A program made the position numbers and the translations under genes. Positions 15,089 to 27,196 of a DNA stretch of 40,368 nt are shown here, one piece after another (positions within the stretch are counted from its first letter, which is position 1; each line of letters starts with the position of its first letter). The stretch is from Calothrix sp. FI2-JRJ7. GTDB taxonomy: Bacteria; Cyanobacteriota; Cyanobacteriia; Cyanobacteriales; Nostocaceae. Where the stretch lies: positions 1 to 40,368 of the forward strand of contig JAHHGX010000035.1 in assembly GCA_019359675.1 (NCBI GenBank). The letters are read 5' to 3'. The notes under the pieces are model-generated. The model worked only from the letters and a program-made list of their open reading frames with translations. It was not told the DNA's origin and did no database searches.

Positions 15089-16402
15089 TTAAGTTGTGTA
15101 CTCGGCATTAATTTTCACGTAGTCGTAACTCAAGTCACAACCCCAAGCTATACCCGAACCGTGTCCGTTACCAATGCTGACTTTAATTATCACTGGGTTA
15201 TCCACTCGTTGCGGCGCCACGGTGCTACGGTCAACTGTAAGGTCGTTGCTCATGTTAGTTGCTGTAAAATCGCTCTTTATACTTGAATTTGCAGCAATGT
15301 GTTTTAAATAATTACTTGCACCCGAACGGTCAAATGGTAATGGTTGCCCATTTTCCATTAGTAAGAAATCACCCAGTTGAATTCGCAAGTTCTCTTGTTC
15401 AAATACAACTCCCGCGCGTCCTCCTGCTGCTGCTATTCTTCCCCAGTTTGGGTCATGCCCAAATATTGCTGATTTTACTAGCGATGAACCTACTATCGTT
15501 TTTGCTACTTGACGTGCTGCTGCATCATCCGGCGCCCCTACCACTTGTACTTCTATCAAGCAAGTTGCACCCTCTCCATCACGGGCAATAGATTTAGCTA
15601 AATGCTGACACACTGCTGTTAACATCGCTTCTAGTTTTTCTGCCTCGGCGCCCATTTCTGTAATTGCAGGAGTTCGCGATTCACCATTGGCAAGGGCAAT
15701 TAAACTATCATTAGTACTAGTATCACCATCTACAGTTATGGCATTGAAACTTCTATCCGCAGCACGCGAAAGCATTTGCTGCCATAAATGGGGTGAAACA
15801 GCCGCATCACACGTTACAAATGCCAGTAATGTTGCCATGTTGGGATGAATCATCCCTGAACCTTTAGCTATTCCACCTATTCGTACTGTCCTATCTCCAA
15901 TAGTTGTCTCTAATGCAATTGTTTTTGGCACCAAATCGGTAGTTATAATTGCTCCTGCTGCCGCATCAGAACCAGTTCCCGAAAGTGCCGCAACAACTTT
16001 AGGAATTCCGCTTCGCATCGCATCCATTTTGATCCGCTGCCCTATTACACCTGTTGATGCCAATAATATTGATTCTGAAGAAATATTTAATGCACTAGCC
16101 AAAAGTTCTGCACTTTCGAGTGCATCGCGCATTCCTTGTTCACCTGTTGCTGCATTCGCTTGTCCCGCATTACAAAGAACCGCACGGGTTATTTGTTTAC
16201 TTTGCAACCGCTCGCGACAATAATCTACACATGCTGCCTTCACGTGACTTGTTGTAAATACTCCTGCTGCTATCGCATCTACATCCGATACTATCAACGC
16301 TAAATCTGGCAACCCCGAAGGTTTTAACCCAGCTTTTATTCCCGCTGCCCGATATCCTCTAGGCGCCGTGATTCCACCATCTATTTCATGCCAGTCTGCC
16401 AT
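15089..16402 (-). CDS. argJ: Glutamate N-acetyltransferase / amino-acid acetyltransferase
   Basis: ArgJ transfers acetyl from N-acetylornithine to glutamate in arginine synthesis, and in bifunctional forms also uses acetyl-CoA. The 437-residue protein carries the self-cleavage site KGSGMIHPNMAT, with Thr191 as the nucleophile that becomes the first residue of the beta chain. TTDLVPKT, GHDPNWGRIAAAGGRAG and the C-terminal AWGCDLSYDYVKINAEYTT are also standard. An insert of roughly 20 residues lies before the last beta strands (TATNMSNDLTVDRSTVAPQR). The ATG start MADWHEIDGGITAPRGYRAA is typical. No other arg gene is adjacent. Confidence 0.96.
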   Translation of the reverse strand: MADWHEIDGGITAPRGYRAAGIKAGLKPSGLPDLALIVSDVDAIAAGVFTTSHVKAACVDYCRERLQSKQITRAVLCNAGQANAATGEQGMRDALESAELLASALNISSESILLASTGVIGQRIKMDAMRSGIPKVVAALSGTGSDAAAGAIITTDLVPKTIALETTIGDRTVRIGGIAKGSGMIHPNMATLLAFVTCDAAVSPHLWQQMLSRAADRSFNAITVDGDTSTNDSLIALANGESRTPAITEMGAEAEKLEAMLTAVCQHLAKSIARDGEGATCLIEVQVVGAPDDAAARQVAKTIVGSSLVKSAIFGHDPNWGRIAAAGGRAGVVFEQENLRIQLGDFLLMENGQPLPFDRSGASNYLKHIAANSSIKSDFTATNMSNDLTVDRSTVAPQRVDNPVIIKVSIGNGHGSGIAWGCDLSYDYVKINAEYTT

Positions 16403-16527
16403 GACCTTACCCGCAATTATGACTGACTGGCGATTATATCAATATAGTGTCACCACTTAATGGTATTTTGTTAAATAACCAGCAACTATATATGGATGTT
16501 AGTAAAAATGCTTTATAGGGAAAAAAA

Positions 16528-16624
16528 GAGAGAGCTACTTCAGCAGCTCTCCAGATCATCAGGGTGCATCTCATAACATAATACACTATTTTGGGGATGC
16601 CGTGCATTACCCCCCATTTATTTT
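16528..16624 (+). ncRNA. Tandem structured element, copy 1 (candidate small RNA)
   Basis: This is the most diverged of five related elements in the argJ-gatB spacer. A 5' hairpin GAGAGCT-ACTTCAGC-AGCTCTC (16530-16551) is followed by the shared core ATCATCAGGGTGCATCT and then a distal strand TGCATTACCCCCC. GGGT of the core can pair with ACCC and GCA with TGC, with a three-base bulge. A T-rich tail follows (TTTATTTT), as in an intrinsic terminator. The stem differs from copies 2-5 but pairs over 7 bases, which suggests structure is conserved. A TTTATAGGG stretch upstream could be a -10. No protein frame is shared between copies. Confidence 0.6.
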
Positions 16625-16689
16625 GAAAAATTTTATAAAGTTTTGTTTATTTGTTGTCTAGTATACAACATAAAAAAGGACAAAAAAAC

Positions 16690-16790
16690 AGAGAGCCACT
16701 TGCGTAACTCTCCGAATCATCAGGGTGCATCTACTTAACATAATATACCATATTAGAGATGATGGGTAAGACCCCTTGTTTTGATTTTGT
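16690..16790 (+). ncRNA. Tandem structured element, copy 2 (candidate small RNA)
   Basis: It has the 5' hairpin with GAGAG and CTCTC arms (16691-16712), the core ATCATCAGGGTGCATCTACT, and the 3' strand GACCCC followed by TTGTTTTGATTTTG. The distal pairing is weaker here because GATGGGTAAGACCCC replaces the GGTGCxxTACCCCC of copies 3 and 5. An A-rich leader precedes the hairpin, as in all five copies. Confidence 0.6.
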
Positions 16791-16828
16791 ATGAAGTTAA
16801 TATGATAAATCCTTAAAGTTAAAATCTA

Positions 16829-16857
16829 TTGATGTGCTAGTTATTTAGTACTAATAA
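16829..16857 (+). promoter_or_regulatory. Candidate promoter of element copy 3
   Basis: TTGATG at 16829-16834 and TAATAA at 16852-16857 are separated by exactly 17 bases. A start 6-8 bases later would put the transcript start at about 16864, just before the A-rich leader and the GAGAG hairpin of copy 3. This supports plus-strand transcription of the array. Confidence 0.4.
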
Positions 16858-16872
16858 AAGTGCAACAAAAAA

Positions 16873-16973
16873 GAGAGCCACTTGCGTAACTCTCCGAATC
16901 ATCAGGGTGCATCTACTTAACACAATATAGCATATTTTGTATGAGGTGCAATACCCCCTGTAAGTATTTTTTC
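16873..16973 (+). ncRNA. Tandem structured element, copy 3 (candidate small RNA)
   Basis: The 5' hairpin GAGAGCCACTTGCGTAACTC and core ATCATCAGGGTGCATCTACT are identical to copies 2 and 4. The 3' strand GGTGCAATACCCCC can pair with the core GGGTGCA (GGGT-ACCC, GCA-TGC, bulge AAT). A TATTTTTTCT run follows, giving a terminator-like end. The 43 bases downstream are nearly the same as those after copy 4. Confidence 0.65.
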
Positions 16974-17094
16974 TGAGTAATGCGTTAAGAAAATTTTATA
17001 GGTGCCTTGAATCAGTGATACCACGGAGCATCCACAGGCGCCGAATCTAAAATTGGGAATTTTGGGGGATTATATTTATAGGTAGATAGAAAAA

Positions 17095-17195
17095 GGAGAG
17101 CCACTTGCGTAACTCTCCGAATCATCAGGGTGCATCTACTTAACACAATATAGCACATTTGGGGTGAGGTGTAGTACCCCCTATAAGTATTTTTT
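17095..17195 (+). ncRNA. Tandem structured element, copy 4 (candidate small RNA)
   Basis: The 5' hairpin is closed by GGAGAG and CTCTCC. Core and spacer match copy 3 almost base for base. The 3' strand GGTGTAGTACCCCC keeps pairing with GGGTGCA through a G-U wobble. It is followed by TATTTTTTCTG. TTGGGA and TTATAG lie upstream with a 17-base spacer, a weak possible promoter. Confidence 0.65.
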
Positions 17196-17274
17196 CTGAA
17201 TAATGCGTTAAGAAAATTTTATAGGCATTAAAAAGCCAAGGAAATTACGTAAGTACGTAAGTAGACAAAAAAAG

Positions 17275-17378
17275 GGAGAGCTATTTACATAACTCTCCGG
17301 ATTCATCAGGGTGCATCTACTTAGCGCACAATATCATTATACGTATGAGGTGCGCTACCCCCTATTCGAGATTTTTTT
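17275..17378 (+). ncRNA. Tandem structured element, copy 5 (candidate small RNA)
   Basis: The stem GGAGAG/CTCTCC is kept although the loop has changed to CTATTTACATAA. The core CATCAGGGTGCATCTACTTA is conserved, the 3' strand reads GGTGCGCTACCCCC, and ATTTTTTTG follows. The copy ends 36 bases before the gatB stop codon, so its terminator-like end may also separate it from convergent gatB transcription. Confidence 0.6.
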
Positions 17379-17413
17379 GTAAGTTTTTGATGAAGAAATA
17401 TTTTCGGTGCCGT

Positions 17414-18889
17414 TTAAGCGTTCAGCTTTTTCTCGACCAATTCGTTGGTGAGACGGGGTTCAGCGAGTTTGTTAGTTTTTTTGAGGACTTGTCCGACGAA
17501 GAATCCTTTGAGATTGACGTTACCACCTTTGTACTTTTCGTATTCTTTGGGGTTAGCGGCGATAACTTCGTCGATAATAGATTCAAGAGTAGCAGGGTCG
17601 CTAATGAGTTCTTTGCCTGCGAAAGCTTTTTCGGGGGTTACACCGTTGAGTAAATCGGTTAACTTTTCTTTTGCTATGGCGTTGCTAATTTTACCACTCT
17701 CAATGCGGGTAATAACATCCGCGAGGTTTTGCGGAGTTAAACCAATTTCGGTGATAGCGAGTTTTTGTTTGTTGAGATAAGCTGCTATATCTTGTGTAAT
17801 CCAGTTTGCCGCAGCTTTGGCACTGGCGCCAGTAGCAATAACTGTTTCAAAATATTCAGAAACAGTACGTTCTTCGGTAAGAACACGCGCATCATATGGA
17901 GAAAGCCCCAAATCAGTTTCGTAGCGATGACGCTTTTGAGCGGGGAGTTCAGGTAACTCGCTTTTCCAAGCATCTAACTGTTCGCTGCTAACTTCGATTG
18001 GTCCTAAATCAGGTTCAGGGAAGTAGCGGTAATCGCTAGAACCTTCCTTCTTACGCATACTAATAGTACGTTGTGAACCTTCTTCCCATAACCGGGTTTC
18101 TTGGAAAATCGGTTCACCAGCTTCGACAGCAGCTATTTGTCGTTCAATTTCGTACTCAATTGCTCTTTGTATTGCGTTGAACGAGTTCATGTTTTTGATT
18201 TCGACTTTGACCCCGAATTCTTTTTGCCCAACTGGACGAACAGATATATTAACGTCACAGCGTAGCGAACCTTCTTGCATGTTACCGTCGCTGACACCGA
18301 GATAGCGCATAATTCGACGTAATTCTTGCGCGTATTCAGCTGCTTCTTGTCCAGAGCGTAAGTCAGGTTCGGATACTATTTCCACTAATGGAACACCTGC
18401 ACGGTTGTAATCTACAAGTGAGTAAGTCGAACCAGATAACCTATCACTACCTGCGTGAACTAATTTACCTGCATCTTCTTCCATGTGCAGACGAGTCACA
18501 CCAATTTTTTTACGAACAGGATTACCATCTTTATCGATTAACTCGATTTCTAACCAACCATGTTCAGCAATAGGTAAATCGTACTGCGATATTTGGTAAT
18601 TTTTAGGTAAATCAGGATAAAAGTACTGCTTACGGTCAAACTTACTATATTTTGCAATTTGGCAATTGAGCGCTAAACCTGCTTTGACAGCATATTCTAA
18701 AACTTTTTGGTTGAGTACAGGTAACACTCCAGGTAAACCCATACAAACCGGGTCGATATTGGTGTTGGGGTCGGCGCCGAACGCTGTCGAACTATCAGAG
18801 AATATTTTAGTGTTAGTACTTAGCTGACAGTGGGTTTCCAGCCCAATAATCGCCTCGTACTCTGTTTTTACTGGAGTAGCAGTAGTCAT
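17414..18889 (-). CDS. gatB: Asp/Glu-tRNA amidotransferase subunit B
   Basis: GatB is the transferase subunit of GatCAB, which converts Glu-tRNA(Gln) or Asp-tRNA(Asn) to the amidated form. The 491-residue protein has the GatB signature blocks IGLETHCQLSTNTKIFS, the substrate-channel region DRKQYFYPDLPKNYQISQYD, GVTRLHMEEDAGKLVH, and the C-terminal helical and YqeY-like tail ending NPKEYEKYKGGNVNLKGFFV then GQVLKKTNKLAEP. The start MTTATPVKTEYEAIIGLETH is normal. gatA and gatC are not in the window, as is usual for scattered cyanobacterial gat genes. Confidence 0.97.
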   Translation of the reverse strand: MTTATPVKTEYEAIIGLETHCQLSTNTKIFSDSSTAFGADPNTNIDPVCMGLPGVLPVLNQKVLEYAVKAGLALNCQIAKYSKFDRKQYFYPDLPKNYQISQYDLPIAEHGWLEIELIDKDGNPVRKKIGVTRLHMEEDAGKLVHAGSDRLSGSTYSLVDYNRAGVPLVEIVSEPDLRSGQEAAEYAQELRRIMRYLGVSDGNMQEGSLRCDVNISVRPVGQKEFGVKVEIKNMNSFNAIQRAIEYEIERQIAAVEAGEPIFQETRLWEEGSQRTISMRKKEGSSDYRYFPEPDLGPIEVSSEQLDAWKSELPELPAQKRHRYETDLGLSPYDARVLTEERTVSEYFETVIATGASAKAAANWITQDIAAYLNKQKLAITEIGLTPQNLADVITRIESGKISNAIAKEKLTDLLNGVTPEKAFAGKELISDPATLESIIDEVIAANPKEYEKYKGGNVNLKGFFVGQVLKKTNKLAEPRLTNELVEKKLNA

Positions 18890-19560: not shown

Positions 19561-21328
19561 AAAGATGTCTTGTGCAGCTTCGCTCGTTAGGTGGAACACT
19601 GGCTTCATTAACGTGAGTTGTTTCAGCTAAATTTTGTACTGTTTCTAAAGTATCAATTTCTTCAACTGGTTTATCCGTGCGTGTTCGCAAAATTCGAGGG
19701 AACCGCAACGCAAAACCGCTATTGTGACGCGATGATGGTTGTACTCGGTCGAAAGTAACTTCTAGTACTAACTTTGGTTCGACTATACAAACTCGACCAT
19801 GTTCTAATTCCTGTATTGTATGTGCGCGACACCAATTACTAATTTCTGTGACTTCAGCATCGGTGAGTCCTGAGTAAGCTTTACCTATATTGAGTAATGT
19901 CGGTTCAGTTTCGCTAGTACGAACAGCAAACGTATAGTCTGATAAAAACCGTGCGCGTTTCCCAGTTCCTACTTCTGCTGCGGTTATTACAACATCGAGT
20001 GTGGCAATAGCACGTTTGATTTTTAGCCATTCTTTACCACGACGACCTGGTTTGTATGTTGAATTAAGGTCTTTGACCATTAATCCTTCGTTACCTCTTG
20101 CGCGTGCTGCTGTAAATTCCGCGTCTAAACCAGAAATATCGTCAAATTGTTTATGAAGTCCTCGTTGAACTTTTTCTGTATCTAACCGTAGCGAATCTAA
20201 TATAGTTCTACGCTCTTTTAGAGGCGCCTCAATTAATACGCAATTATTAGCATACAAAATATCATATACAATAAATGCTACAGGCACTTCTTCTATTAAC
20301 TCTTGTTTAACTTGCTTACGCCCAAGTCGTTTTTGTAATTCTTGGAAAGGCAATATCTTGGCGCCTCGAATTGGTACTATTTCCCCATCTAAAATTAAAT
20401 CATTGTCAATATCGTCGCTTATCAGTTGTGCAAGCGATTCAATTAAATCGGGAAATGTCCCTGTAATTTCATCTAAAGTTCGTGAAAACAAAGCTACCCG
20501 GCAATCATTAATAACAATTCCATGCAAACTATCTTCCCCCTTTCTCCCCATTCCGATATGAGCTTGTGCGCGAATACCATCATATTTATCTTCGACGGCA
20601 AACCCTTGTGGCATTTGCTTTGTAACTTCCGTTAAATCATCCGCAGGACTAGCAAGCATAAACTTGATGGGATGAAAAAGTCGCATTTTTGCTTGCTCAA
20701 GTCGTTGATGACGAGCAAGGATAGCGGTTTCACCAATATCACCAGTTAACATATTCACCCATTGCACTTTCGCAACTGGGACTTTGAACGAACGAGCAAG
20801 AGCATCTTCAACTGCTCCCTCTTTTAATCCAATTCGCAAATCACCTGCTAAAAGTTTAACGATATACTTAGCTTCGAGGGGAGTCGCAAGTCTTAATAAT
20901 TCAGTAACTAGCGAAGTTTTGCTTTTAGTTCCACTAACCGCAGCTAGTTGTTCGAGTTTAGAGAATAAGCTATATAAGGTAAGAGTAGATGGAAGTTGCC
21001 TAGATTTAACATTATCGCTCAAAACTTCAAATGCGACATCTCCAGGGTCTCCCAGTTTAACTAAACGCTCTTGATATTTAGATTTTTCTATATTCGCAAT
21101 AGTTGTAATCGCTGTTTGTAAAGCTGCTCCACCAATATTGATTGTACGTTGGTCACGTAGCGCAAAAATATAACCAGCAAAAAAGCGCGCAGCAGTTATT
21201 AAATCTTCATCTACCAGTTTATTGAAGTAATCACCAAGTATTGAAGCTTTTATCATTCGCTTTGATGTCGCGGCAATATTTTCTGCTGTTTGGGCAAATT
21301 CAATTAACGCAGATGGTGAATAAGTCAT
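19559..21328 (-). CDS. ATP-dependent DNA ligase
   Basis: The 589-residue protein has an N-terminal DNA-binding domain (residues 1-230, with GDLRIGLKEGAVEDALA), an adenylation domain with motif I VEDKYDGIRAQAH where Lys248 is the AMP-carrying lysine, motifs LILDGEIVP, GNEGLMVKD and EWLKIKR, and an OB-fold C-terminus (VITAAEVGTGKRARFLSDY, RVCIVEPKLVLEVTFD, LRFPRILRTR). It seals DNA nicks with ATP, unlike the essential NAD-dependent LigA. No ligase-associated exonuclease or helicase gene is adjacent. The ATG at 21328 fits. The last residues NERSCTRHL are not typical of the family. Confidence 0.93.
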   Translation of the reverse strand: MTYSPSALIEFAQTAENIAATSKRMIKASILGDYFNKLVDEDLITAARFFAGYIFALRDQRTINIGGAALQTAITTIANIEKSKYQERLVKLGDPGDVAFEVLSDNVKSRQLPSTLTLYSLFSKLEQLAAVSGTKSKTSLVTELLRLATPLEAKYIVKLLAGDLRIGLKEGAVEDALARSFKVPVAKVQWVNMLTGDIGETAILARHQRLEQAKMRLFHPIKFMLASPADDLTEVTKQMPQGFAVEDKYDGIRAQAHIGMGRKGEDSLHGIVINDCRVALFSRTLDEITGTFPDLIESLAQLISDDIDNDLILDGEIVPIRGAKILPFQELQKRLGRKQVKQELIEEVPVAFIVYDILYANNCVLIEAPLKERRTILDSLRLDTEKVQRGLHKQFDDISGLDAEFTAARARGNEGLMVKDLNSTYKPGRRGKEWLKIKRAIATLDVVITAAEVGTGKRARFLSDYTFAVRTSETEPTLLNIGKAYSGLTDAEVTEISNWCRAHTIQELEHGRVCIVEPKLVLEVTFDRVQPSSRHNSGFALRFPRILRTRTDKPVEEIDTLETVQNLAETTHVNEASVPPNERSCTRHL

Positions 21329-25030: not shown

Positions 25031-27196
25031 ATGTCTGAAGAATTAAATTTTCAAAATAGTAGTGTTGACCGCTTACCACCGCAAATCATTGAGGCTGAGG
25101 AAGCTGTGCTGGGCGGTATATTATTAGACCCCGAAGCAATCAGTAGAGTTAGTGACCGTCTGCAACCAGAAGCATTTTATATTAGTGCCCATAAAGAAAT
25201 TTACCAAGCGACTTTAAGTCTCCATCGGCAAGGCAAACCAACTGATTTACTTAGTGTTACAAGTTGGCTTTCTGACCATGATTTGCTCGCGCGCGTTGGT
25301 GGTAGAAATAAACTCGCGTCTTTGATTGAATCTACAGTATCTGCTGTAAACATTGATGCTTTAGCACAATTAATTACAGACAAATATCAACGGCGCCGAT
25401 TAATTAAAGCCGGAAATGAAATAGTCCAGTTAGGATACGAAACCGAAACGGATATTAGTAAAGTCATAGACCAAGCGGAGCAAAAAGTTTTTAATATTGC
25501 TCAAGACCGTTCTAATTCAGGTTTAGTTCATATTAGTGATTCTCTAATTAGTAATTTTAAAGACATTGAGAATCGTAATCAAGGTATAGCGTTACCAGGT
25601 ATTTCCTCTGGTTACTATGATTTGGACGCAATGATAAACGGAGGTTTTCAGCGCTCAGACTTGGTTATTATTGCCGGGAGACCTGCAATGGGAAAATGTG
25701 TAGCTTACGATACAGAAATTTTGTTAGCTGATGGTTCTATTTCTTCTATAGAAGAGATATATCATCGCCAAAAAGCGAATTTAATTACATTGGGAGATAA
25801 TTGGAAATTTAAAGTAGCTCAACCATCAGCGTATGTAGATGATGGTCATAAGCCAGTATTCCGTGTAACTACTCGTTTAGGAAGATATGTAGAAACAACT
25901 ATAACTCATCCATATTTAACCATTAATGGATGGCGCCCGCTCTCTGAATTGAAGGTAGGTGATAAAGTCGCAGTACCTAGAAAATACAATGTATTTGGTA
26001 CAGAAACTATCACCGATAGTGAAGTGAAATCGCTGGTAGATTTTATAAATGGTGGCGCCGAAACTATCCCACCAATTATATTTAAATTAACACGAGCGCA
26101 AATTGCTTTATTTTTAAACCGCTTATTTGCAAATAATGGATGGCCATCATCAGGTCAAGCACAATTAGGATATTGTAGTGTTAACGAGAAACTTGCAAGG
26201 CAAATACAGCATCTTCTTTTGAGATTTGGAATTATTGCTGCTTTAAAAAGAAAATCGGTTAAATATCAAGAGACTCGTCGAGAAGCTTGGCAATTAGACG
26301 TTATAGATGCTAACTCTATTAAAACTTTTGCTTCAGAAATAGGTATATTTGGTAAACAGAAAGCAATATCTAATATAGAGTTAGCTAATAATGATGTATA
26401 TTGGGATGAAATTGTTTCAATTGAACCAATGGGAGAAAAGCAAGTTTATGACTTGACTATTTCAGAAACTCACAACTTTGTTGCTAATGATATATGTGTA
26501 CACAATACAAGCTTTTCGATTAATATAGCTCACTATATTGCTGGTTCAATGCGAATGCCAGTAGCAATATTTAGTTTAGAAATGTCAAAAGAACAATTGG
26601 CGTTACGGATGTTATCGAGCGAAGCAAGAATTGAAAGTACTTATTTGCGAAGTGGACGTATTAGTCAAAATCAATGGGAAGATTTAACGCGCGGTATTAG
26701 TCTATTACAGGATATGCCTATTTATATAGATGATACACCTGGCATTACTGTAACTGAAATGCGGAGCCAAGCACGGCGCCTACAAGCAGAAGCAGGCGCC
26801 GATTTAGGGTTAATCTTGATAGATTACTTACAATTAATGGAGGGTGCAGGTGATAACCGCGTTCAAGAGTTATCGAAAATTACTCGTAACATTAAAGGTT
26901 TAGCAAGGGAATTAAATGTACCAGTTATTGCGCTTTCGCAGTTAAGTAGAGGCGTAGAATCACGTACAAATAAGCGACCAATGTTATCAGATTTACGCGA
27001 AAGCGGCAGTATTGAACAAGACGCGGATTTGGTGATGATGCTATATCGTGATGAGTATTATTCTTCAGATACACCTGAGCGAGGTTTGGCTGAAGTTATT
27101 GTTGCTAAACACCGTCATGGTCCAACTGGAACTATAAAGCTGTTGTTTGACCCACAGTTTACTCAGTTCAAAAATTTAGCACGGGGTAGTTATTAG
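25031..27196 (+). CDS. dnaB: Replicative DNA helicase with P-loop intein
   Basis: DnaB is the hexameric helicase that opens the replication fork. The 721-residue precursor has the N-terminal DnaB domain (residues 10-115, PPQIIEAEEAVLGGILLDPE), a linker helix, and the RecA-like domain starting near ISSGYYDLDAMINGGFQ. The Walker A loop GRPAMGK|T is split after Lys222 by a 270-residue intein (223-492). After it come TSFSINIAHYIAG, FSLEMSKEQLALRMLSSEAR, LILIDYLQLM, PVIALSQLSRG and DLRESGSIEQDADLVMMLYR, the last showing the other known cyanobacterial DnaB intein site empty. The mature helicase would be about 451 residues, normal size. Activity requires splicing. Confidence 0.97.
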   Translation: MSEELNFQNSSVDRLPPQIIEAEEAVLGGILLDPEAISRVSDRLQPEAFYISAHKEIYQATLSLHRQGKPTDLLSVTSWLSDHDLLARVGGRNKLASLIESTVSAVNIDALAQLITDKYQRRRLIKAGNEIVQLGYETETDISKVIDQAEQKVFNIAQDRSNSGLVHISDSLISNFKDIENRNQGIALPGISSGYYDLDAMINGGFQRSDLVIIAGRPAMGKCVAYDTEILLADGSISSIEEIYHRQKANLITLGDNWKFKVAQPSAYVDDGHKPVFRVTTRLGRYVETTITHPYLTINGWRPLSELKVGDKVAVPRKYNVFGTETITDSEVKSLVDFINGGAETIPPIIFKLTRAQIALFLNRLFANNGWPSSGQAQLGYCSVNEKLARQIQHLLLRFGIIAALKRKSVKYQETRREAWQLDVIDANSIKTFASEIGIFGKQKAISNIELANNDVYWDEIVSIEPMGEKQVYDLTISETHNFVANDICVHNTSFSINIAHYIAGSMRMPVAIFSLEMSKEQLALRMLSSEARIESTYLRSGRISQNQWEDLTRGISLLQDMPIYIDDTPGITVTEMRSQARRLQAEAGADLGLILIDYLQLMEGAGDNRVQELSKITRNIKGLARELNVPVIALSQLSRGVESRTNKRPMLSDLRESGSIEQDADLVMMLYRDEYYSSDTPERGLAEVIVAKHRHGPTGTIKLLFDPQFTQFKNLARGSY
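25697..26506 (+). mobile_element. DnaB intein (270 residues, eroded homing endonuclease)
   Basis: The intein starts at Cys223 (CVAYDTEILLADGS, block A), has TTITHPYLTINGW (block B, TxxH) and ends with QVYDLTISETHNFVAND (block F) and CVHN before Thr+1 (block G), so the splicing residues Cys1, His, Asn and Thr+1 are present. It is longer than a mini-intein but shorter than a full homing-endonuclease intein. The middle keeps only the second half of a LAGLIDADG domain: LFLNRLFANNGW in place of the usual LxxLFDADG helix, then NEKLARQIQHLLLRFGIIAA. The first LAGLIDADG helix is missing and the catalytic acid is replaced by Asn. Splicing-competent but immobile is the likely state. Confidence 0.9.

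What the first reader, a model, noticed from the sequence alone, without database searches (positions are those of the whole stretch)
16528..17378. Five tandem copies of a structured, probably transcribed RNA element between argJ and gatB
Five units of about 100 bases start at intervals of 161-223 bases. Each has an A-rich leader, a GAGAG/CTCTC hairpin, the nearly invariant core ATCATCAGGGTGCATCT, a distal strand ending ACCCC that can pair with GGGT of the core, and a T-rich tail. That is the layout of a small-RNA gene with an intrinsic terminator, repeated five times. No shared protein frame exists. Tandem small-RNA arrays such as NsiR1 are known in cyanobacteria upstream of hetF, but hetF is not here and I do not recognise the sequence as a described family. 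The conserved unpaired core could be a base-pairing or protein-binding site.
Basis: partly seen in the sequence, partly recalled or inferred. Interest (0 to 1): 0.88.

Follow-up and report, generated by a model that had tools for sequence, protein, structure and literature searches.

The report
Second NsiR1-type small-RNA array
Between two housekeeping genes of this filamentous cyanobacterium lie five tiny regulatory-RNA genes that share the front end of NsiR1, a known regulator of nitrogen-fixing cells, but seem to be switched on by a different promoter that resembles the binding site of the master regulator HetR.

Summary
The five units are real but lie on the minus strand. Each reads: GGGGT palindrome, -10 box, 52-56-nt RNA with conserved 5' element (AGAUGCACCCUGAUGA), GGAGAG/CUCUCC hairpin, T-run. 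All five match Rfam NsiR1 (RF02399) end to end but below threshold (19.4-33.2 bits; gathering 39): same 5' element, different hairpin. The same genome has a canonical NsiR1 array beside hetF, so this is a second, sibling array. It is conserved between gatB and argJ: 267 of 286 copies lie beside one or both genes, none misoriented, 19 unplaced. Promoters split cleanly: GGGGTNTNACCCC (2 mismatches or fewer) in 162 of 227 such copies and 0 of 73 hetF-array copies; DIF1 (1 or fewer) in 4 of 227 and 73 of 73. NsiR1-type RNAs track HetR across 386 genomes; where HetR was not found, the box is missing in 8 of 9 loci. Most likely these are trans-acting NsiR1 siblings under HetR control. Expression and targets are untested, and only 1 of 5 window boxes keeps strict GGGnnnnnCCC.

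The parts
15089..16402 (-). argJ, the gene downstream of the array
   Evidence: TIGR00120 529 bits, NF003802 507 bits
17414..18889 (-). gatB, the gene upstream of the array
   Evidence: NF004012 681 bits, TIGR00133 596 bits
17267..17322 (-). sRNA gene 5 (gatB-proximal); 5' end inferred
   Evidence: RF02399 32.3 bits; model R1; hairpin 17275-17298
17087..17141 (-). sRNA gene 4; 5' end inferred
   Evidence: RF02399 27.9 bits; model R1; hairpin 17095-17118
16864..16918 (-). sRNA gene 3; 5' end inferred
   Evidence: RF02399 28.4 bits; model R1; hairpin 16872-16895
16682..16736 (-). sRNA gene 2; 5' end inferred
   Evidence: RF02399 33.2 bits; model R1; hairpin 16689-16714
16521..16576 (-). sRNA gene 1 (argJ-proximal); 5' end inferred
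   Evidence: RF02399 19.4 bits; model R1; hairpin 16529-16552
17349..17361 (-). HetR-box-like palindrome of gene 5 (GGGGTAGCGCACC)
   Evidence: 3 of 11 mismatches to GGGGTNTNACCCC
17168..17180 (-). HetR-box-like palindrome of gene 4 (GGGGTACTACACC)
   Evidence: 2 of 11 mismatches
16945..16957 (-). HetR-box-like palindrome of gene 3 (GGGGTATTGCACC)
   Evidence: 2 of 11 mismatches
16763..16775 (-). HetR-box-like palindrome of gene 2 (GGGGTCTTACCCA), the only strict GGGnnnnnCCC of the five
   Evidence: 1 of 11 mismatches
16601..16613 (-). HetR-box-like palindrome of gene 1 (GGGGTAATGCACG), the weakest
   Evidence: 4 of 11 mismatches
17328..17333 (-). putative -10 of gene 5 (TATTGT)
   Evidence: position conserved in the family; inferred
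17147..17152 (-). putative -10 of gene 4 (TATATT)
   Evidence: position conserved in the family; inferred
16924..16929 (-). putative -10 of gene 3 (TATATT)
   Evidence: position conserved in the family; inferred
16742..16747 (-). putative -10 of gene 2 (TATATT)
   Evidence: position conserved in the family; inferred
16578..16583 (-). putative -10 of gene 1 (TATTAT)
   Evidence: read from sequence; inferred

Best explanation
The locus is a tandem array of five small-RNA genes on the minus strand, siblings of NsiR1. Shown by sequence: each unit has a conserved upstream palindrome (family consensus GGGGTNTNACCCC), a -10 box, a 5' element identical to that of NsiR1 and an intrinsic terminator; the arrangement gatB - RNA genes - argJ is conserved. 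Inferred: HetR binds the palindrome, centred near -34 of the inferred start, and drives 52-56-nt RNAs, probably in differentiating cells or under nitrogen limitation. The RNAs act in trans by base-pairing through the mostly unpaired 5' element, as NsiR1 does, so that two arrays place one element under two kinds of promoter (DIF1 beside hetF, HetR box here). Several copies give dose and, through differing boxes, several promoter strengths.
For: Minus-strand terminators 5 of 5. RF02399 over its full length on all five units. Own hetF array shown beside HetF (NF045509, 1409 bits). Synteny: 182 copies between gatB and argJ, 53 with argJ only and 32 with gatB only in the stretch, 19 unplaced, 0 misoriented, of 286. 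Box at 2 mismatches or fewer in 161 of 222 copies, 0.4 expected from shuffles; promoter split against the hetF arrays. R1 match at E 1e-3 in 80 of 80 HetR genomes and 24 of 306 others; at 1e-5 in 77 of 80 and 9 of 306. Box in 31 of 31 HetR-positive loci outside the window's family and 1 of 9 HetR-negative loci; HetR found in 15 of 15 other named genomes and in neither L104 nor L117, which have no box. Published HetR sites: GAGGGGTCTAACCCCTC in hetP, requirement GGGnnnnnCCC (PMC4192349, passages). Hairpin covariation: 10 cells changed on both sides against 4.0 in shuffles.
Against: No expression or binding data. In the window only 1 of 5 boxes keeps GGGnnnnnCCC and gene 1 has 4 mismatches; over the family 117 of 222 copies have GGGnnnnnCCC upstream. 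A group of Nostoc loci has decayed boxes (4-5 mismatches) though HetR is present in the four genomes checked. G043 has the box but no HetR match. Number of pairs with two-sided change is not above shuffles (3; 267 of 500 shuffles reach it). No target: 25 of 26 hetP-like start regions were no better than their shuffles and one beat all 40 of its own, about what chance gives.
Confidence: 0.7

Rival explanations
1. Ordinary extra NsiR1 copies: the same RNA in function and timing, only at another place; the promoter difference is of no consequence.
For: Identical 5' element and terminator layout; eight dispersed NsiR1-like genes in this genome show that copies spread.
Against: Different hairpin in all copies examined, below the NsiR1 threshold; clean promoter split, box 190 of 227 against 0 of 73 at 3 mismatches or fewer; own conserved synteny.
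Confidence: 0.15
2. NsiR1 siblings as described, but the palindrome is the site of another factor and HetR control is indirect or absent.
For: Degenerate boxes in this genus and in Nostoc; one HetR-negative genome keeps the box; the RNA persists in genomes without HetR.
Against: Match to published HetR sites; box and HetR occur together in 31 of 31 and 15 of 15 genomes sampled and both are missing in G052/L117, L104 and g68.
Confidence: 0.2
3. Cis elements: promoters and attenuators that set argJ transcription or end gatB transcription, not trans-acting RNAs.
For: The units sit just upstream of argJ on the same strand wherever argJ is held.
Against: The 5' element is shared with NsiR1 and dispersed genes that are not beside argJ; in g68 the RNA lies away from gatB and argJ; in Scytonema hyalinum copies stay beside gatB and beside argJ although these lie in different stretches of the contig (L065 and L079).
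Confidence: 0.06
4. A tiny leaderless peptide beginning M-H-P-D is encoded by the element.
For: ATGCACCCTGAT is present in nearly all copies examined, partly because search patterns fixed it.
Against: Frames shift or stop right after it: gene 5 has a 1-nt insertion, hetF-array copies run into stops and one lacks the ATG. Identity extends upstream of the ATG.
Confidence: 0.03

Closest known systems
NsiR1 (Rfam RF02399), tandem array beside hetF in Nostoc sp. PCC 7120
   Same: Identical 5' element GUAGAUGCACCCUGAU, about 60 nt, hairpin plus T-run, tandem copies with own promoters; present in the same genome.
   Different: Different hairpin sequence, below gathering score; between gatB and argJ instead of beside hetF; HetR-box-like palindrome instead of DIF1.
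HetR-bound promoters such as hetP and hetZ
   Same: Family consensus GGGGTNTNACCCCTCA matches the hetP site GAGGGGTCTAACCCCTC.
   Different: Drives an sRNA; binding untested; boxes degenerate in this strain. The passages seen of the HetR ChIP study do not mention nsiR (0 occurrences).
NsiR8 and NsiR9, HetR-dependent sRNAs of Nostoc
   Same: HetR-dependent sRNAs (PMC4734099, passages and one section).
   Different: Reported as 171 and 122 nt and not as tandem arrays in the parts read; their sequences were not seen.

Membership tests
NsiR1 (RF02399) | Rfam gathering score of 39 bits | tested here: not met
   33.2, 32.3, 28.4, 27.9, 19.4 bits over the full model
NsiR1 (RF02399) | 5' element UAGAUGCACCCUGAU | tested here: met
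   AGAUGCACCCUGAU in all five, UAG in four; gene 1 reads GAG
NsiR1 (RF02399) | Tandem array of copies, each with its own terminator | tested here: met
   Five units, five minus-strand terminators
NsiR1 (RF02399) | Upstream of hetF on the opposite strand | tested here: not met
   Lies between gatB and argJ; hetF with a canonical array is on contig C20
NsiR1 (RF02399) | DIF1 motif TCCGGA near -35 | tested here: not met
   0 of 5 window units within 1 mismatch; 73 of 73 distinct hetF-array copies
NsiR1 (RF02399) | HetR-dependent, heterocyst-specific transcription | not testable with these tools
   No expression data for this strain
NsiR1 (RF02399) | Regulates hetF and the hetP-like gene alr3234 | tested here: inconclusive
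   No pairing beyond shuffles in 25 of 26 hetP-like start regions of relatives; this genome's own could not be assessed; hetF leader not tested
HetR-bound promoters | GGGnnnnnCCC core | tested here: inconclusive
   1 of 5 window units; 117 of 222 family copies
HetR-bound promoters | Site occurs with HetR and is missing without it | tested here: met
   31 of 31 HetR-positive loci with the box, 8 of 9 HetR-negative loci without, exception G043; the eight are two lineages (g68 and G052)
HetR-bound promoters | HetR binding in vitro or in vivo | not testable with these tools

The most novel reading that the evidence does not exclude
The gatB-linked RNA is a second, HetR-box-driven arm of the NsiR1 system: one 16-nt element under two promoter codes (HetR box and DIF1) with different hairpins, kept through HetR-bearing filamentous cyanobacteria. 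It persists without HetR and without the box in unicellular relatives, so HetR recruited, or later lost, an sRNA whose job is broader than heterocyst development.
Probability: 0.4. Interest if true: 0.75.

Novelty: new variant of a known kind. Interest (0 to 1): 0.6.

Why it matters
NsiR1 is one of few sRNAs known to act in a bacterial cell-differentiation programme, and the papers seen here treat the hetF array as its source. A second array with the same 5' element and apparently direct HetR control would be an overlooked part of that circuit and could complicate NsiR1 depletion and overexpression results. It also supplies natural controls: genomes without a HetR match that keep the RNA between gatB and argJ but without the box, in which to ask what the element does outside heterocysts.

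Tried and rejected
Plus-strand RNA as first proposed: no plus-strand terminators and weaker folds. Rfam at gathering threshold: nothing in the window or in 11 related loci. At relaxed threshold other families also appear weakly, for example sbrA at 19.8 bits on gene 4; I take these as chance hairpin matches.

Finding hetF by CHAT domain: 20 stretches of this genome and 8 of another gave other CHAT genes or no NsiR1-like array. RF02399 hits then located the array and hetF and NCBIfam confirmed HetF. Tandem repeats of 53 nt and 126 nt near CHAT genes are not NsiR1-like.

Targets: 29 hetP-like loci from 12 genomes; 3 without a usable start, this genome's own among them; of 26 assessed, 1 beat all 40 of its shuffles and 25 did not. 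Exact CAGGGTGCAT in this genome: 21 hits = 5 window units, 4 hetF-array copies, 8 dispersed NsiR1-like genes, 4 inside coding frames. Imperfect targets were not searched genome-wide.

Prior description: the searches on NsiR1, its relatives and argJ/gatB listed no paper on NsiR1 relatives between gatB and argJ; I read only parts of a few of the listed papers, and the original NsiR1 paper (Ionescu 2010) is not held, so this is weak evidence of novelty.

Full report
Observation. Start spacings are 161, 182, 223 and 180. BLAST with one unit found five matches in the 8.66-Mb genome, all in this array.

Strand and anatomy. A terminator scan of 16300-17500 found five sites, all on the minus strand and one per unit, against 0.8 expected in shuffles. 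Minus-strand folds have z-scores of -1.99 to -3.42, plus-strand folds -0.59 to -1.81. On the minus strand each unit reads: GGGGT palindrome, -10 box, the conserved AGATGCACCCTGATGA element, a 10-pair hairpin, a T-run. In isolated folds the element has a mean unpaired probability of 0.56 to 0.83. The transcription start near AAGTAG is inferred from the -10 position, not measured.

Kinship with NsiR1. Rfam gives nothing at gathering threshold. At relaxed threshold NsiR1 (RF02399) matches all five units over its full length on the minus strand, with 33.2, 32.3, 28.4, 27.9 and 19.4 bits (gathering 39); the 5' part is the same, the hairpin is not. The same genome holds a canonical array: hetF (NF045509, 1409 bits) at L260 733-3276 minus, and six NsiR1 copies on the opposite strand, the nearest 460 nt upstream. 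Of 14 stretches with RF02399 hits fetched from this and 13 other genomes, 11 showed hetF with the copies upstream on the opposite strand and 3 showed no hetF match. Eight dispersed NsiR1-like genes were also seen in this genome. The window array is therefore a second, sibling array.

Distribution and synteny. BLAST found the unit in 47 of 60 related genomes. These and 30 loci make 146 loci; some are the same genome twice, and the pattern fixes part of the element. In them 286 hairpin-bearing copies were placed: 182 between gatB and argJ, 53 with argJ only, 32 with gatB only, 19 with neither within 2.5 kb in the stretch held; none was misoriented. In 73 loci bracketed by both genes the number of copies was 1 in 34, 2 in 6, 3 in 10, 4 in 12, 5 in 10 and 8 in 1. 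Record titles include heterocystous and non-heterocystous filamentous genera (which genera form heterocysts is recalled).

Structure. On 49 copies, 95.0% of hairpin cells are standard pairs (92.8% in shuffles, 0 of 500 as high); 10 cells are changed on both sides against 4.0 (0 of 500); three pairs have such changes, which 267 of 500 shuffles reach. Support is moderate, because the base of the stem hardly varies.

Promoter. Over 222 of 233 copies (11 dropped for lacking the plain hairpin pattern; some of those are diverged copies, some unrelated) the upstream consensus is GGGGT....CCCCTCA followed by TATA.T. GGGGTNTNACCCC within 2 of 11 mismatches occurs in 161 of 222, 0.4 expected from shuffles. 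HetR binds GAGGGGTCTAACCCCTC in the hetP promoter and needs GGGnnnnnCCC (PMC4192349, passages). The hetF arrays differ: 0 of 73 distinct copies have the box at 3 mismatches or fewer and 73 of 73 have DIF1 at 1 or fewer (49 exact). Of 227 distinct copies of the window's type, 162 have the box at 2 or fewer and 190 at 3 or fewer; 4 have DIF1 at 1 mismatch, none exactly. The dispersed genes of this genome have no box (0 of 9 distinct stretches) and DIF1 within 1 mismatch in 7 of 9. Window boxes have 3, 2, 2, 1 and 4 mismatches for genes 5 to 1, and only gene 2 keeps GGGnnnnnCCC. The variants are unit-specific and shared by seven genomes of the genus: GGGGTAATGCAC in 7 of 7 argJ-proximal units, GGGGTAGCGCACC in 6 of 7 gatB-proximal units. 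This suggests that each promoter is kept in its own form.

HetR as natural control. In the same 386 genomes, model R1 (built from 49 copies) matches 104 and HetR (PF03574) 80. All 80 HetR genomes have an R1 match at E 1e-3, 77 at 1e-5; of the 306 others, 24 match at 1e-3 and 9 at 1e-5. R1 also hits canonical NsiR1 weakly, so this tracks the NsiR1 group, not the gatB locus alone; RF02399 itself rings in 95 of 386, over its cut-off in 80. I fetched 40 of the 104: all nine HetR-negative ones at 1e-5 or better and 31 of the 37 HetR-positive ones outside the window's family. A box with 3 mismatches or fewer lies at the fixed distance (within three positions) in 31 of 31 HetR-positive loci and 1 of 9 HetR-negative loci. 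The exception, G043, has 11 RF02399 matches and 320 contigs, so a missed or lately lost hetR is possible but not shown; a second search again found none. Seven HetR-negative genomes are one genus (g68), with the RNA away from gatB and argJ.

Among 143 named and unnamed loci, three had 5 or 6 mismatches in their best box: L104 (Chroococcidiopsidaceae MAG), L117 (Gloeocapsopsis) and L119 (Nostoc, a decayed form of the Nostoc variant; its HetR not checked). L104 and L117, both still between gatB and argJ, lie in genomes without a HetR match, while 15 of 15 other named genomes searched have one. G052 and L117 are probably the same genome, so the lineages without HetR and box number about three. 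A group of Nostoc loci has a decayed box (4 mismatches) although HetR is present in the four genomes checked.

Function. In PMC9045159 (abstract, Introduction, Results part 1 of 2, Discussion and Methods read) NsiR1 copies from individual DIF1 promoters repress hetF by antisense and the hetP-like gene alr3234. By analogy the window RNAs should act in trans through the shared element. If hetF transcription starts beyond its nearest NsiR1 copy, the hetF leader carries a perfect complement of the element; here that copy is 460 nt upstream of hetF and the start site is unknown, so this is inference. A scan of 26 hetP-like start regions gave one that beat all 40 of its shuffles, about what chance gives. 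Outside sRNA genes the exact CAGGGTGCAT occurs four times in this genome, always inside coding frames. The target question is open.

Prior art. Searches listed no paper in the held library that describes NsiR1 relatives between gatB and argJ. One paper reports a 57-nt Limnospira RNA that resembles NsiR1 (PMC8400943, passages). 'DIF2' motifs are named in PMC10287535 (passages) but their sequence was not seen; the promoter here might be such a motif. The founding NsiR1 paper is not held.

Verdict. Real, sRNA-like, on the opposite strand from that proposed, and a sibling of NsiR1 rather than an unknown family. The strong parts are synteny, promoter split and correlation with HetR. The weak parts are expression, targets and the degenerate boxes of this strain.

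Noticed in passing
L370, L371, L372, L373, L374, L375, L387, L390 (own genome, contigs C5, C6, C8, C13, C71, C87): Eight dispersed NsiR1-like sRNA genes with the same 5' element, various hairpins and DIF1-like -35 motifs.
   Followed up: partly
L302-L308 (seven genomes of unnamed genus g68, no HetR match): A single-copy RNA with the same element and a GGAGAG hairpin, away from gatB and argJ and without a HetR box. Its role without HetR is unexplained.
   Followed up: partly
L065 and L079 (Scytonema hyalinum MAG, same contig JAHHIB010000067.1): gatB and argJ lie in different stretches of the contig; one copy stays beside gatB and six beside argJ.
   Followed up: no
window 25031-27193 +: DnaB-like helicase with intein splicing and LAGLIDADG domains.
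   Followed up: no
window 19562-21328 -: ATP-dependent DNA ligase with N-terminal, catalytic and C-terminal domains.
   Followed up: no
L169 5335-5665 (own genome, contig C10): Tandem repeat of about 53 nt, five copies, nature unknown, near a CHAT-domain gene.
   Followed up: no
   Followed up: partly
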